From Burkholderia plantarii (GTDB taxonomy: Bacteria; Pseudomonadota; Gammaproteobacteria; Burkholderiales; Burkholderiaceae), in NCBI RefSeq assembly GCF_001411805.1, contig NZ_CP007212.1:558001-622000 (forward strand): 64,000 nucleotides of DNA. Direction: 5' to 3'. The position numbers and the translations under genes are program-made. The notes beneath the pieces were generated by a model. It searched no databases and was not told where the DNA came from. It was given only the letters and a program-made list of their open reading frames with translations. This document shows, one piece after another, positions 43,867 through 48,035 of the stretch (position 1 is its first letter; each line of letters begins with the position of its first letter).

Positions 43867-44061
43867 GCGCCGCGCGAGCGGCGCGGCCCATGCGGCCTGC
43901 GCGGCTCGCATGGCTTGTGCGGTGCTTGCCGCCGGCGTCAGCGGCCGCGGCACGGCGCGCATACAATCGATCACTCGCCGGCGCCCCGACCGGGCGCGGG
44001 CGGCAATTGCCAACGGCATCTGGCCGCGCCACGCGGCCGCCATTCCGGATTCGGGTTCACG

Positions 44062-45333
44062 ATGGATATCGACCAGTACATGACCGACGTCGGCCGCCGC
44101 GCGCGGCAGGCCTCGCGCGCGATCGCGCGGGCCGACACGGCGGCGAAGAACGCCGCGCTCGCCGCGATCGCCACCGCGATCGAACGCGAGGCCGACGCGC
44201 TCAAGGCCGCTAACGCGCGCGACGTCGAGCGAGCGCGCGCGAAGGGCCAGGACGCCGCGTTCGTCGACCGCCTGACGCTGTCCGACAAGGCGCTGAAGAC
44301 GATGGTGGACGGCCTGCGGCAGGTCGCGGCGCTGGCCGATCCGATCGGCGAGATCTCGAACCTGAAGTTCCGCCCGAGCGGCATCCAGGTCGGCCAGATG
44401 CGCGTGCCGCTCGGCGTGATCGGCATCATCTACGAATCGCGGCCGAACGTGACGATCGACGCGGCGGCGCTGTGCCTGAAGTCCGGCAACGCGACGATCC
44501 TGCGCGGCGGCTCCGAGGCGCTTGAATCGAACACCGCGCTGGCGCGGCTGATCGGCGAGGGGCTCGCGGCGGCGGGGCTGCCGGCCGACGCCGTGCAGGT
44601 GGTCGGGACCGCCGATCGCGCGGCCGTCGGCAAGCTGATCACGATGACCGAATACGTCGACGTGATCGTGCCGCGCGGCGGCAAGAGCCTGATCGCGCGG
44701 CTGATCGAGGAGGCGCGCGTGCCGATGATCAAGCATCTCGACGGGATCTGCCACGTGTACGTCGACGATCGCGCCGACCTGGCGAAGGCGCTGACCGTCT
44801 GCGACAACGCCAAGACCCATCGCTACGGCACCTGCAACACGATGGAAACGCTGCTCGTCGCGCGCGGCATCGCGCCGGCGGTGCTGCCGCAGCTGGGGCG
44901 CCTCTATCGCGACAAGTCGGTCGAGCTGCGCGTGGACGCGGCCGCGAAGGCCGTGCTGGCGGCGGCCGGGGTCGGCCCGCTGGTGGACGCGACCGAGGAG
45001 GACTGGCGCACCGAATATCTGGCGCCGGTGCTCGCGATCAAGCTGGTGGACGGGCTCGACGCCGCGATCGAGCACATCAACACGTATGGCTCGGCGCACA
45101 CCGACGCGATCGTCACCGAGGACCACGACCGCGCCATGCGCTTCCTGCGCGAGGTCGATTCGGCCAGCGTGATGGTGAACGCCTCGACGCGCTTCGCGGA
45201 CGGTTTCGAATACGGCCTCGGCGCCGAGATCGGCATCTCGAACGACAAGCTGCACGCGCGCGGGCCGGTCGGGCTCGAGGGGCTGACCTCGCTGAAGTAC
45301 GTCGTGCTCGGGCATGGCGAAGGGCGGCAGTAA
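44062..45333 (+). CDS. proA: Gamma-glutamyl phosphate reductase
   Basis: Reduces gamma-glutamyl phosphate to glutamate semialdehyde in proline synthesis. The 423-residue aldehyde-dehydrogenase-fold protein has [40 protein letters not shown], and the catalytic-Cys stretch [13 protein letters not shown] near residue 260, and ends in GRQ. A possible -10 box TACAAT lies at 43962-43967. The following gene starts only 22 bp after the stop. Confidence 0.96.
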
Positions 45334-45355
45334 CACGACATCAAAGGGAACCGGA

Positions 45356-46759
45356 ATGCTGACGAAACTGCGTGTGAAGGGGTTCAAGAGCCTCAACGAC
45401 ATCTCGGTCGATTTCGGGCCCTTCACCTGTATCGCCGGCGCGAACGGGGCGGGCAAGTCGAACCTGTTCGACGCGATCATGTTCCTGCGGGATCTGGCGG
45501 ACATGCCGATCATCGCGGCGGCGCATCAGGTGCGCGACCGTGGCGGCAGGCGTTCCGGCTCGGTCGGCTCGATCTTCACGCGGCACAAGGGCGGGGCCGC
45601 CTCGCGGATGGAGTTGGAGGCCGAGTTTCTCGTCTCAAGCGAGGTCATCGACGACTTCAATCGACGTGGTGAGCCGCACGCCACGCACCTGCGGTATCGC
45701 CTCGTGCTCGAATACCTGCTCGACGAGCGCTCGGGCAGCGAGCGCATTGGTCTGTGCGAGGAGTCGCTGACCTACATCCCCAAAAGCGAGTTCAGAAAGA
45801 GCCTGTTCCCGCACAGCCTCTGGTTCTGGGAGTCGGTCAAGGGTGGGGTGAAGACGAGTCCGTTCATCTCCACCACGATCGAGCCTCATGACGGCAGCAC
45901 CACGATCAATATCCACCAGGACAGCGGCAATTCGCGCGGGCGTCCGGAAAGCATTCCCGCGAGCGGCATGGAGCGAAGCGCATTGAGCAGCGTGAACACC
46001 ATCGACCGGCCGACCGCGTTGGCGGCGCGCCGTGAAATGCAGTCGTGGGCGCTGCTGCAGCTCGAACCGTCGGCATTGCGGCAGCCCGACGATTTCTCGA
46101 CGCCCTCCGATATTCATGTGGCACCGTCGGGTGCGCATATGCCGGCGACGCTGCGCCGCCTGAATCGCGATGCCGAGGTGGCCAACCGGCTGGCCGAGCT
46201 GATCCCCGACGTGGCGGAACTGGGTGTCGAAGTCGACGAGGCACGGCAGTTGAAAACCCTGCATCTGACCAATCGCGATGGCATTCGCTACCCGGCCAAG
46301 GCCCTTTCGGACGGGACGCTGCGGTTTCTCGCATTGGCGATCATCCATGCGGACTTCGAGTCCGGCGGCGTGATCTGTCTGGAGGAGCCTGAGAACGGCA
46401 TTCACCCGTCACGGATCGAGGCGATGGCGAAGCTGCTGCGCGACATGGCGGTCGATCCGAAATGGCGTGTCGATGAAGGTAATCCACTGCGACAGGTCAT
46501 TATCAACACGCATTCGCCGTCGCTGGTGAGGAAGCTGAAACCGGAGGATCTGGTGGTGTGCCGTCAGCGGCGTCAGGGCGGAGCCCCCTTCAGCGCGTTC
46601 GAGTTTCTCGCCGATACGTGGCGCAGCCGCATTTCCAGCGAACCTCCGACCTCGCTTGGGGCGCTAATGGCCTATCTCGACAAGGATGAAGCCATGAAGG
46701 ACGAGCAGGAGCCGACCATGGGCGTCTTGTTGGAAAAGCAATACGAATTGTTCAACTGA
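45356..46759 (+). CDS. ABC/OLD-type AAA ATPase of a putative two-gene defence cassette
   Basis: A 467-residue predicted ATPase of the AAA_21/OLD/SMC-like group. It begins LTKLRVKGFKSLNDISVDFG and has Walker A GANGAGKSN (about residues 28-36). An ABC-type signature, ALSDGTLRFLALAI (about residue 313), is followed by Walker B VICLEEPENGIHPSR (about residue 338) and the His-switch NTHSPSLVRKL (about residue 383). There is no fused TOPRIM domain. The next gene, 14 bp away, encodes a TOPRIM-like protein. Such ATPase plus separate nuclease-like pairs are often anti-phage systems (PARIS, AbiL and related), so this is a plausible defence sensor. Base composition is lower in GC by eye than neighbouring core genes. 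Confidence 0.8.
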   Translation: MLTKLRVKGFKSLNDISVDFGPFTCIAGANGAGKSNLFDAIMFLRDLADMPIIAAAHQVRDRGGRRSGSVGSIFTRHKGGAASRMELEAEFLVSSEVIDDFNRRGEPHATHLRYRLVLEYLLDERSGSERIGLCEESLTYIPKSEFRKSLFPHSLWFWESVKGGVKTSPFISTTIEPHDGSTTINIHQDSGNSRGRPESIPASGMERSALSSVNTIDRPTALAARREMQSWALLQLEPSALRQPDDFSTPSDIHVAPSGAHMPATLRRLNRDAEVANRLAELIPDVAELGVEVDEARQLKTLHLTNRDGIRYPAKALSDGTLRFLALAIIHADFESGGVICLEEPENGIHPSRIEAMAKLLRDMAVDPKWRVDEGNPLRQVIINTHSPSLVRKLKPEDLVVCRQRRQGGAPFSAFEFLADTWRSRISSEPPTSLGALMAYLDKDEAMKDEQEPTMGVLLEKQYELFN

Positions 46760-46773
46760 ACGGTGCCGCCGAC

Positions 46774-47391
46774 ATGTTCATCCGGTACACCTTGCTTGCC
46801 GATGGTACGTCCGATGGCGTCCTGCTGCCCATCATCCGTTGGACGGTCGAATCGAATTTCCCCGACCTCGAACTGGCTGGCGAATGGGCCGGCGACGGCA
46901 TTCCGGCGGCGAGAAGCGGCTTGCTCAAGCGCGTGAGCGCCGCTGTGGAACTCTACACATGCGATGTCCTGTTCGTCCATCGCGACGCGGAGCGGGACGG
47001 CTACGCGCTACGCCGCCAGCAGCTCGAAGGTGAACTGGCGGGGATCGCGCAGACCTGGATTCCCGTGATCCCGGTGCGCATGAGCGAAGCGTGGCTGCTC
47101 GGCAACCCGCGGGCGATCCGGAGCGCCGCAGGCAATCCCAACGGCGACGCGAAATTGGAGTTGCCGGCGAAGCGCCAGTGGGAGAGCCGTCCCGATCCGA
47201 AAGCGGACCTGTTCGCGTCGCTGCACGCTGCCGCCAACCTGCCGAAGCGGCGGACCATCAACAAAGGTCGATGCCGACTGCGCGTGGCCGAACTCACCAC
47301 CGATTATTCTCACCTGCGCGGCCTGCCGTCGTTCGATGCCTTCGAGGCCGACGTCGTCCGCGTGTTCAACGACATCAAGGCCAAGGCATGA
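46774..47391 (+). CDS. Small TOPRIM-like protein, partner of the ATPase
   Basis: A 205-residue protein with a TOPRIM-like arrangement: an acidic loop near the N-terminus, LLADGTSD (residues 7-14), and a central strand FVHRDAERDG (about residues 68-77) that fits the D-x-D motif of TOPRIM folds. PVRMSEAWLLGNPRAIRSAAG and a Lys/Arg-rich C-terminal half follow. I cannot name the family; it is similar in size and logic to DUF4276/DUF4435-type partners of OLD/AAA ATPases. It may be the nuclease effector of the pair. The first acidic residue is Asp rather than the usual Glu. Its stop overlaps the hemJ ATG by 4 bp. Confidence 0.72.
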   Translation: MFIRYTLLADGTSDGVLLPIIRWTVESNFPDLELAGEWAGDGIPAARSGLLKRVSAAVELYTCDVLFVHRDAERDGYALRRQQLEGELAGIAQTWIPVIPVRMSEAWLLGNPRAIRSAAGNPNGDAKLELPAKRQWESRPDPKADLFASLHAAANLPKRRTINKGRCRLRVAELTTDYSHLRGLPSFDAFEADVVRVFNDIKAKA

Positions 47392-47810
47392 CGTATCTCT
47401 GGGTCAAGACTTTCCACATCGTGCTGATCGCCGCGTGGTTCGCGGGGCTGTTCTACCTGCCGCGCATCTACGTGAACCTCGCGATGGAGAGCGATCCCGG
47501 CGCGGTGCGCCGGCTGCTCGCGATGGCGCGCAAGCTGTTCCGCTTCATGAGCTTCATCGCCGTGCCGGCGCTCGCCTGCGGGCTCTGGCTCTGGCTCGTC
47601 GCCGGCGTCGGGCGGGGGCAGGGGTGGATTCACGCGAAGCTGACGATCGTCGTGCTGCTGATCGTCTATCACGTCTACTGCGGGCATCTGCTGCGCGTGT
47701 TCGAGCGCGGCGAGAACCGCCGCTCCGATCGCTGGTATCGCTTCTTCAACGAACTGCCGGTGCTCGGCATGCTCGGCGCCGTCGCGCTGGCCGTGATCAA
47801 GCCGTTCTGA
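47388..47810 (+). CDS. hemJ: Protoporphyrinogen oxidase HemJ (CopD-family membrane protein)
   Basis: HemJ oxidises protoporphyrinogen IX to protoporphyrin IX in haem synthesis. The 140-residue inner-membrane protein has four hydrophobic segments and the family block WVKTFHIVLIAAWFAGLFYLPRI at the N-terminus, in which the His is the haem or catalytic ligand. WIHAKLTIVVLLIVYH and GHLLRVFERGENRRS carry the conserved Lys and Arg. In related genomes it normally lies directly after proA, as far as I know; here the ATPase/TOPRIM pair separates them and its start overlaps the preceding gene (ATGA). Confidence 0.9.
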   Translation: MTYLWVKTFHIVLIAAWFAGLFYLPRIYVNLAMESDPGAVRRLLAMARKLFRFMSFIAVPALACGLWLWLVAGVGRGQGWIHAKLTIVVLLIVYHVYCGHLLRVFERGENRRSDRWYRFFNELPVLGMLGAVALAVIKPF

Positions 47811-48035
47811 GGTAGGTTTCGCGCCGCTGCGCGGCATCGCCGATTGGTTGACTTGTTGATTCGAGGTTCGCGCCGGGGGCTGCCGGCGCGAACCGGCCTC
47901 CGCATGGGCCGGCGAGCCTTGCACGCGCTTTGCGCCGATTCACGGCGTCGACCCGGGCCACGATGGCCGCGCCATCCTCAACGCCACCGCTCCACCTCCT
48001 CATCACGCATCGCGGCCATCATTGTCGCCGGCCGC

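What the first reader, a model, noticed from the sequence alone, without database searches (positions are those of the whole stretch)
45356..47391. Candidate two-gene defence cassette (OLD-type ATPase plus small TOPRIM-like protein) between proA and hemJ
The first gene encodes an ATPase with Walker A GANGAGKSN, signature ALSDGTLRFLAL, Walker B VICLEEPENG and switch NTHSPS, without a fused TOPRIM. Fourteen bases on, the second gene encodes a 205-residue protein with TOPRIM-like acidic loops (LLADGTSD, FVHRDAERD). Established knowledge: separate ATPase plus TOPRIM/nuclease pairs include PARIS (AriA/AriB) and AbiL. The pair sits inside a core gene order and uses less GC-biased codons; in two sampled lines I counted 37/60 G+C inside and 41/60 in proA. 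The partner does not clearly match a named family to my eye.
Basis: partly seen in the sequence, partly recalled or inferred. Interest (0 to 1): 0.75.

Follow-up and report, generated by a model that had tools for sequence, protein, structure and literature searches.

The report
Site-locked ATPase–nuclease gene pair
A two-gene module, an ATPase plus a small TOPRIM-like probable nuclease that resembles a predicted anti-phage system, sits at one fixed chromosomal spot in a few scattered bacteria of two families, and its predicted active site shows a strict two-residue acid swap that makes its chemistry testable.

Summary
Gene A (45356-46759, 467 aa) is an ABC/OLD-type ATPase without TOPRIM. Gene B (46774-47391, 205 aa) starts 14 bases later; its stop overlaps hemJ's start codon. 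The pair matches PADLOC's candidate system HEC-01 (A E=2e-97, B E=2e-20). B is a divergent DUF4276-type protein, and DUF4276 aligns to OLD TOPRIM motifs, so the TOPRIM guess holds, by a two-step argument. No experiment in hand shows defence.

Two things go beyond the label. (1) The pair lies between proA and hemJ in 3 of 65 Burkholderia-genus genomes, and at that site in the 11 carriers among 294 genomes of a second family (10 seen on both sides, one cut by a contig end). The 19 site-located pairs among 85 form one clade. (2) In B, residues 10 and 73 hold D/E in 249, E/D in 53, D/D and E/E in none of 317 proteins, with 12 switches by parsimony: the top covarying pair of 12,053, suggesting a shared metal site.

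Best model: PARIS-like, ATPase sensor plus nuclease effector. Rarity on plasmids and phages weakens the defence reading.

The parts
44062..45333 (+). proA (gamma-glutamyl phosphate reductase), upstream core gene
45356..46759 (+). Gene A, HEC-01A: ABC/OLD-type ATPase of 467 aa, proposed sensor/scaffold
   Evidence: AAA_21 E=2.4e-28; PADLOC HEC-01A E=2.3e-97; best solved relative by sequence OLD 6p74, N-terminal 41 residues only
45437..45463 (+). Walker A, residues 28-36
   Evidence: sequence; G28, N30, G33, K34, S35, N36 each 84 of 85, one gap
46301..46336 (+). ABC signature ALSDGTLRFLAL
   Evidence: S318 and G320 85 of 85, D319 84 of 85
46370..46399 (+). Walker B VICLEEPENG
   Evidence: E343 and E344 85 of 85
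46505..46522 (+). switch/His loop NTHSPS
   Evidence: H386 85 of 85, S387 83 of 85
46774..47391 (+). Gene B, HEC-01B/DUF4276-like TOPRIM-type protein of 205 aa, proposed nuclease effector
   Evidence: PADLOC HEC-01B E=2e-20; hhalign to DUF4276 score 63.8 against at most 23.9 in 59 valid column shuffles; Pfam's own DUF4276 model alone is below cut-off, E=0.012
46801..46815 (+). first acidic motif DGTSD; D10 is half of the swap pair
   Evidence: D10/E73 249, E10/D73 53 of 317
46978..46992 (+). second acidic motif HRDAE; D71 invariant, E73 the other half of the swap pair
   Evidence: H69, R70, D71 317 of 317; pair 10-73 ranks first of 12,053
47086..47094 (+). E105-A-W107 motif, resembling ExEAW in DUF4276
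   Evidence: E105 316 of 317, W107 317 of 317; aligned with DUF4276
47388..47391 (+). ATGA overlap of the stop of B with the start of hemJ
   Evidence: sequence; B-hemJ spacing -4
47388..47810 (+). hemJ (UPF0093), downstream core gene

Best explanation
The pair is a HEC-01-type two-component module that most likely works like PARIS. ATPase A binds and restrains B, senses an infection-related or DNA-damage-like trigger, and then releases or activates B. B is a metal-dependent TOPRIM-type nuclease whose acids D10, D71 and E73 (probably also E105) hold the metal, and it cuts a nucleic acid that is essential to host or phage. The module is carried as an optional two-gene insert between proA and hemJ, with no promoter-like or terminator-like site of its own in a simple scan, and is gained, swapped and lost there. 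Shown: genes, motifs, family relation, adjacency, fixed site, single site clade, acid covariation. Inferred: complex formation, nuclease activity, trigger, target, defence role, co-transcription.
For: PADLOC HEC-01A/B hits. A directly upstream of B in 77 of 80 loci of many phyla. B is a DUF4276 relative (63.8; 59 valid shuffles at most 23.9), and DUF4276 aligns to the OLD TOPRIM at EG...E and D.D with 0 of 60 column shuffles reaching the score. Residues 10 and 73: 302 of 317 hold one Asp and one Glu, none D/D or E/E, 12 switches by parsimony on the B tree, 6 on the tree of the partner ATPase alone; this is what a shared, functioning metal site predicts. Patchy occupancy, 3 of 65 Burkholderia and 11 of 294 of family f8, and silent divergence at least 1.2 times higher in both cassette genes than in both flanks in 12 of 14 pairs that I picked, fit gain, swap and loss. 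Precedent: AriA ABC-ATPase hexamer holds AriB, a TOPRIM tRNase, until triggered (PMC12409363, passages read).
Against: No activity data. The B profile alone does not align with RloB above chance (17.8; 3 of 60 shuffles reach it). With the OLD TOPRIM it scores 21.3, just above 60 shuffles (20.9, 18.0), but the stretch aligned pairs the second motif of B with the first of OLD, so it is no support; the TOPRIM step goes through DUF4276. With B and DUF4276 combined the score to OLD is 19.1, probability 1.4%, above all 57 valid shuffles. No structure could be predicted. Twelve of 317 B proteins have N or V at position 10, always with E73. Plasmid records with a relative: 3 of 72,556 for A at E<=1e-30, 1 for B, besides one hit labelled plasmid in Burkholderia sp. 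FERM BP-3421 (P0248); phage records 1 of 50,697 for B at 26% identity; no relative confirmed in viral contigs. Among 117 neighbours of non-site copies each of 96 PADLOC families matched one protein at E<=1e-10; around site copies 0 of 40 matched.
Confidence: 0.5

Rival explanations
1. Genome-maintenance or stress module: a RecF/SMC-like ATPase with a nuclease that serves the host's own DNA or RNA and not defence, optional under some conditions.
For: An archaeal OLD-family protein, Cran1, is reported not to be antiviral but to act in the cell cycle (PMC12796447, start of abstract, passages). Here: rarity on plasmids and phages; neighbours of non-site copies include SspB, IMP dehydrogenase, TGT and RNase HII (25 of 138 Pfam families shown; two PD-(D/E)XK and two PIN proteins are also among them); tight fit into a core gene order.
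Against: Absent from 62 of 65 Burkholderia genomes at this site and without a match in 283 of 294 of f8; a maintenance function would be expected to be more regular.
Confidence: 0.2
2. Addiction-type toxin-antitoxin pair: B is a toxic nuclease held by A; the module persists by post-segregational killing and any phage effect is secondary.
For: Two-gene order with 1-21 bases between A and B at the site, a probable nuclease partner, no further gene between proA and hemJ.
Against: Addiction modules usually ride on mobile elements (recalled); this family is rare there. The small gene comes second and the large ATPase is no typical labile antitoxin (recalled).
Confidence: 0.15
3. The fixed site reflects simple vertical inheritance from the ancestor of both families with very many losses, and no transfer at all.
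For: One site clade; the deep split of the cassette tree follows the two families, and the Massilia-like subclade is nearly the same as in the proA+hemJ tree. For one pair (Massilia pinisoli/Root335) cassette and flank silent divergence are similar: A 58/208, B 20/93, proA 48/246, hemJ 15/71. No foreign tract was seen in the flanks.
Against: Each data set rejects the other's tree (AU p<1e-50): Duganella 1411 and Rugamonas A1-17 share a divergent A, and the P. saeva cassette groups with those of G026 and B. guangdongensis rather than outside Burkholderia (support 96). Silent divergence is higher in the cassette than in the flanks in 12 of 14 picked pairs, e.g. G026 against B. guangdongensis A 139/195, B 45/76, proA 44/242, hemJ 20/75; rpoB 92/700. 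GC3 of A and B is 0.54-0.60 in three hosts whose flanks have 0.82-0.94. Codon-usage differences may explain part of this.
Confidence: 0.2
4. The 10-73 acid swap is a phylogenetic artefact or an alignment error and does not mark an active site.
For: Trees of a 200-residue protein are weakly supported at many nodes, so switch counts are uncertain; the second sample was drawn with nine swapped members as query and is enriched for them.
Against: Motif search without alignment: D/E 246, E/D 53, N/E 11, V/E 1, no motif found in 5 and one misread, P0081, where an earlier HRD was caught. 6 switches on the tree of the partner ATPase; no D/D or E/E in 317; rank 1 of 12,053 pairs; the DUF4276 outgroup mostly shows the E...DxD form.
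Confidence: 0.07

Closest known systems
HEC-01 (PADLOC-DB 2.0.0 candidate; HEC = Hma-embedded candidate of Payne et al. 2024, preprint not held)
   Same: Both genes match its A and B models in the same order; six of six tested relatives, swapped and unswapped, match HEC-01B best.
   Different: Fixed proA-hemJ site with no PADLOC match among 40 flanking proteins. A later paper says several HECs, HEC-06 named, were active in assays (PMC12988326, passages); whether HEC-01 was could not be read here. The only other mention of HEC-01 found is a prediction in Desulfovibrio piger (PMC12724379, passage).
PARIS (AriA/AriB; proposed OLD class 4)
   Same: Separate ABC ATPase and small TOPRIM-type gene; A also matches PADLOC AriA models (E=1.5e-28).
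   Different: B is DUF4276-like, with no hit to AriB models; rare on phages and plasmids; single site in two families.
AbiL (AbiLi/AbiLii, RloA/RloB type)
   Same: ATPase plus small partner; A matches AbiLi (E=5e-22); DUF4276 as a whole aligns with RloB (30.6, 0 of 60 shuffles), so a distant kinship is likely.
   Different: B itself: no Pfam RloB or PADLOC AbiL match and a direct profile score within shuffles (3 of 60), apart from a shared E-x-WLL stretch.
OLD nucleases and Gabija GajA
   Same: ATPase core; DUF4276 profile aligns to the OLD TOPRIM motifs (29.3, 0 of 60 shuffles).
   Different: There ATPase and TOPRIM are fused; here they are separate genes and no helicase gene lies between proA and hemJ.
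MADS Mad3
   Same: Best NCBIfam hit of A (E=2.5e-41).
   Different: 142 bits, far below the 420-bit cut-off; only A and B lie at the site.

Membership tests
HEC-01 (PADLOC) | gene A matches HEC-01A | tested here: met
   E=2.3e-97 over residues 1-398
HEC-01 (PADLOC) | gene B matches HEC-01B | tested here: met
   E=2e-20, residues 60-201
HEC-01 (PADLOC) | A and B adjacent | tested here: met
   14 bases apart; A directly upstream in 77 of 80 related loci
HEC-01 (PADLOC) | anti-phage activity | not testable with these tools
   no experiment; preprint not held
DUF4276 (PF14103) | score over the Pfam gathering cut-off | tested here: not met
   16.3 bits, cut-off 30.2; some homologues carry PF14103
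DUF4276 (PF14103) | profile-profile relation over most of the length | tested here: met
   score 63.8, 178 columns; best of 59 valid shuffles 23.9
TOPRIM fold | E...DxD acidic triad in the right order | tested here: inconclusive
   the window's B has D10...D71xE73; the E10...D71xD73 form is in 53 of 317 relatives
TOPRIM fold | profile match to a known TOPRIM family | tested here: inconclusive
   B alone to OLD 21.3, just above shuffles but out of register; through DUF4276 above all shuffles and in register
TOPRIM fold | three-dimensional fold | not testable with these tools
   structure prediction switched off
PARIS | AriB-type (DUF4435) partner | tested here: inconclusive
   no PADLOC AriB and no Pfam DUF4435 hit for B; only 2 DUF4435 loci were found, so no profile was compared
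AbiL | RloB-type partner | tested here: not met
   no RloB match in Pfam or AbiL match in PADLOC; hhalign 17.8, reached by 3 of 60 shuffles; DUF4276 as a whole is a distant match

The most novel reading that the evidence does not exclude
A chromosomal immune-like module that is locked to one intergenic site (proA-hemJ) across two bacterial families and is exchanged there as alleles or lost, with no integrase gene between the flanks, and whose effector is a TOPRIM enzyme in which the two outer acids of the metal site repeatedly trade places (Asp/Glu to Glu/Asp), with no D/D or E/E intermediate in 317 sequences.
Probability: 0.5. Interest if true: 0.68.

Novelty: new member of a known kind. Interest (0 to 1): 0.5.

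Why it matters
The label is known (a PADLOC candidate), but the pair gives two handles. First, a clean natural case of an optional two-gene insert that recurs at the same core-gene junction, useful to test how such genes spread by recombination in flanking core genes, as Oliveira et al. 2017 proposed for hotspots without integrases (PMC5635113, abstract and passages). Second, a strict reciprocal acid swap that points to active-site residues before any structure exists and raises a direct question: how does an enzyme change both acids when neither single intermediate (D/D or E/E) is seen?

Tried and rejected
Rejected: a universal Burkholderia gene (3 of 65); a housekeeping partner (B is DUF4276/HEC-01B); direct RloB membership of B; a general integration hotspot at this site in Burkholderia (62 of 65 gaps are only 19-76 bases, counted from the last sense codon of proA, so no other gene sits there); a visible donor tract in the flanks (next to the cassette, 300-column bins: G026 against empty G039 95% and 97%, G000 against G015 96% and 98%, G016 against G040 93% and 87%; farther bins vary, some much lower where gaps fall); a GC3 anomaly in the window copy (69th percentile of an uncleaned ORF set). 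The first genome-contig scan with the single protein confirmed nothing; the alignment query did (best 80 of 158 relatives kept). Paper searches: HEC-01 with PADLOC and DUF4276 found nothing; HEC-01 alone listed 5 papers, one relevant; DUF4276 had no occurrence in the 20 listed of 363; one on swapped TOPRIM acids listed 10 of 12 papers, none on the point by title and start of abstract. I claim absence from print no further than these. In the first shuffle control some runs failed with printed errors and may have repeated the score before; I redid it with stale output removed, and those counts are the ones quoted unless one search is named.

Limits: genomes are one per species, drawn evenly; the 85-pair tree holds the loci most like the query, 85 of 90 being complete enough. 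The 317 B proteins are the 240 listed hits of two searches (120 each) plus 85 loci, duplicates removed. The 117 neighbours scanned are 117 of 235 picked ORFs, the site control 40 of 62; how many of the 117 matched PADLOC is not shown (25 of 96 families listed). The 14 pairs were my choice.

Full report
What is there. Gene A runs from 45356 to 46759 (467 aa) and gene B from 46774 to 47391 (205 aa), both on the + strand, 14 bases apart; the stop of B overlaps the start of hemJ by four bases, and A starts 22 bases after proA. A simple scan found no promoter-like or terminator-like site in 44000-48000, where shuffles gave 0.4 and 2.2 on average, so co-transcription from proA is likely but only inferred.

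What the proteins are. A is an ABC/OLD-type ATPase: AAA_21 E=2.4e-28, no TOPRIM; PADLOC HEC-01A E=2.3e-97, with weaker AriA, AbiLi, Mad3, OLD and GajA matches. NCBIfam's best is MADS Mad3 at 142 bits, cut-off 420. B matches PADLOC HEC-01B at 2e-20 and Pfam DUF4276 only at E=0.012. A profile of 40 B relatives aligned to 12 DUF4276 proteins over 178 columns with score 63.8; 59 valid column shuffles reached at most 23.9. Against RloB the B profile scores 17.8, reached by 3 of 60 shuffles. Against the OLD TOPRIM it scores 21.3, just above the shuffles (20.9, 18.0), but the stretch aligned sets the second motif of B on the first of OLD, so I do not count it. DUF4276 itself aligns to the OLD TOPRIM with 29.3 (none of 60 shuffles above 15.8) at the E-G and D-x-D motifs, and to RloB with 30.6 (none of 60 above 16.8). 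No solved structure matches the B profile. So B is TOPRIM-like by a two-step argument.

The acid swap. In 85 loci, position 10 is D in 74, E in 10 and missing in 1, and position 73 is E in 75 and D in 10; the ten are the same proteins. In 317 distinct proteins: D10/E73 249, E10/D73 53, N10/E73 11, V10/E73 1, position 10 missing 3, D/D none, E/E none. On the B tree, with the two columns left out, parsimony needs 12 switches, and each site alone also needs 12. On the tree of the partner ATPase it needs 6 among 85, where 500 random labelings gave mean 9.6, minimum 7, so the states are partly inherited but have switched repeatedly. Pair 10-73 ranks first of 12,053 column pairs by corrected mutual information. 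A motif search without alignment gave D/E 246, E/D 53, N/E 11, V/E 1 and one D/T, with no motif found in five; the D/T is protein P0081, where the search caught an earlier HRD. The search that supplied most swapped members used nine swapped proteins as query, so 53 of 317 is not a natural frequency. One Asp plus one Glu, in either order, is what two ligands of one metal would need; this is inference.

Where it sits. In 65 Burkholderia-genus genomes proA and hemJ are neighbours in every one; the gap is 2057 bases in 3 (the window, G026, G016) and 19-76 bases in 62. G015, G048 and G052 carry distant relatives elsewhere. In 398 genomes of the family, which include that genus, 10 had a match, 4 of them the close type, and these 4 sit at proA-hemJ. 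In 399 genomes of the order 5 had a match. In 294 of family f8 (Oxalobacteraceae-like, inferred from named relatives) 11 had a match; 10 have proA and hemJ on both sides and one has hemJ beside B with the contig ending before A. In named records the site holds the pair in Burkholderia guangdongensis, Paraburkholderia saeva, Herbaspirillum, Undibacterium, Rugamonas, Duganella, Massilia, Telluria and others. Of 85 A/B pairs, the 19 at proA-hemJ form one clade with support 0.99 (A+B), 0.98 (A) and 0.94 (B). Spacings at the site are 9-25 bases proA-A, 1-21 A-B and -23 to +9 B-hemJ.

How it got there. The cassette tree and the proA+hemJ tree agree in the family split and in much of the Massilia-like subclade, but each data set rejects the other's tree: Duganella 1411 with Rugamonas A1-17 carries a divergent A, and the P. 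saeva cassette groups with those of G026 and B. guangdongensis. In 12 of 14 species pairs that I picked, fourfold-site differences in both A and B are at least 1.2 times those in both proA and hemJ, e.g. M. mucilaginosa against G979: A 127/217 and B 53/96, proA 40/230 and hemJ 15/71; in M. pinisoli/Root335 they are similar, and in Undibacterium/G895 all four are high. rpoB for the genomes of two such pairs (G957/G979 and G026/G016) gives 0.11 and 0.13. Flanks up to the junction look like the host's own in three comparisons. I read this as repeated exchange and loss of cassette alleles at one site, by recombination in the flanking core genes or as an old polymorphism shared across species; the data do not separate the two, and codon-usage differences may inflate the silent distances. 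Several protein hits are named after species such as B. gladioli, B. multivorans and B. pseudomallei, while only 3 of the 65 species genomes carry the pair at the site; if those species are among the 65, it is polymorphic within them (inference).

Is it defence? For: PADLOC's candidate system, PARIS-like architecture, patchy presence. Against: plasmids 3 of 72,556 records for A at E<=1e-30 and 1 for B, with one more hit labelled plasmid among the protein hits (P0248); phages 1 of 50,697 for B at 26% identity (A was not searched there); viral contigs none confirmed. Among 117 neighbours of non-site copies, each of 96 PADLOC families matched one protein at E<=1e-10 (the 25 shown are HmaB, GajA, PD-T4-6 and Mad6; the number of proteins is not shown), and the Pfam families shown (25 of 138) are largely metabolic and informational, with two PD-(D/E)XK and two PIN proteins. 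Around the site copies 0 of 40 matched PADLOC. An OLD-family protein that is not antiviral is known (PMC12796447). PARIS is described from PMC12409363 and the OLD classes from PMC10568477, passages read in both.

Verdict. A genuine, conserved two-gene module, a member of a known candidate kind; its fixed site and its swapped acids are the parts worth following.

Noticed in passing
L164:3467-5935 and L165:3286-5756: In two other Burkholderia-genus genomes (G015, G048) a different HEC-01-type pair is 95.7% identical over 2,471 bases, but nothing outside that block matched between the two loci at E<=1e-5: a compact 2.47-kb unit at two different places; I did not search for a recombinase.
   Followed up: partly
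L025 and L030: Duganella sp. 1411 and Rugamonas sp. A1-17 carry a strongly divergent A at the same proA-hemJ site (long branch), while their proA and hemJ are close to those of relatives: probable allele replacement.
   Followed up: partly
L153 against L155 (A gene): A is 97% identical in protein but differs at 127 of 217 fourfold sites, while proA differs at 40 of 230: strong constraint on what looks like an old allele pair.
   Followed up: no
P0273, P0283, P0289 and eight more B proteins: Eleven B proteins have Asn at position 10, always with Glu73; possibly altered or inactive metal sites.
   Followed up: no
G000:C2:2815722-2815922: The window's own genome also holds one OLD-like TOPRIM match (PF20469) on its second contig, unrelated in position.
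   Followed up: no
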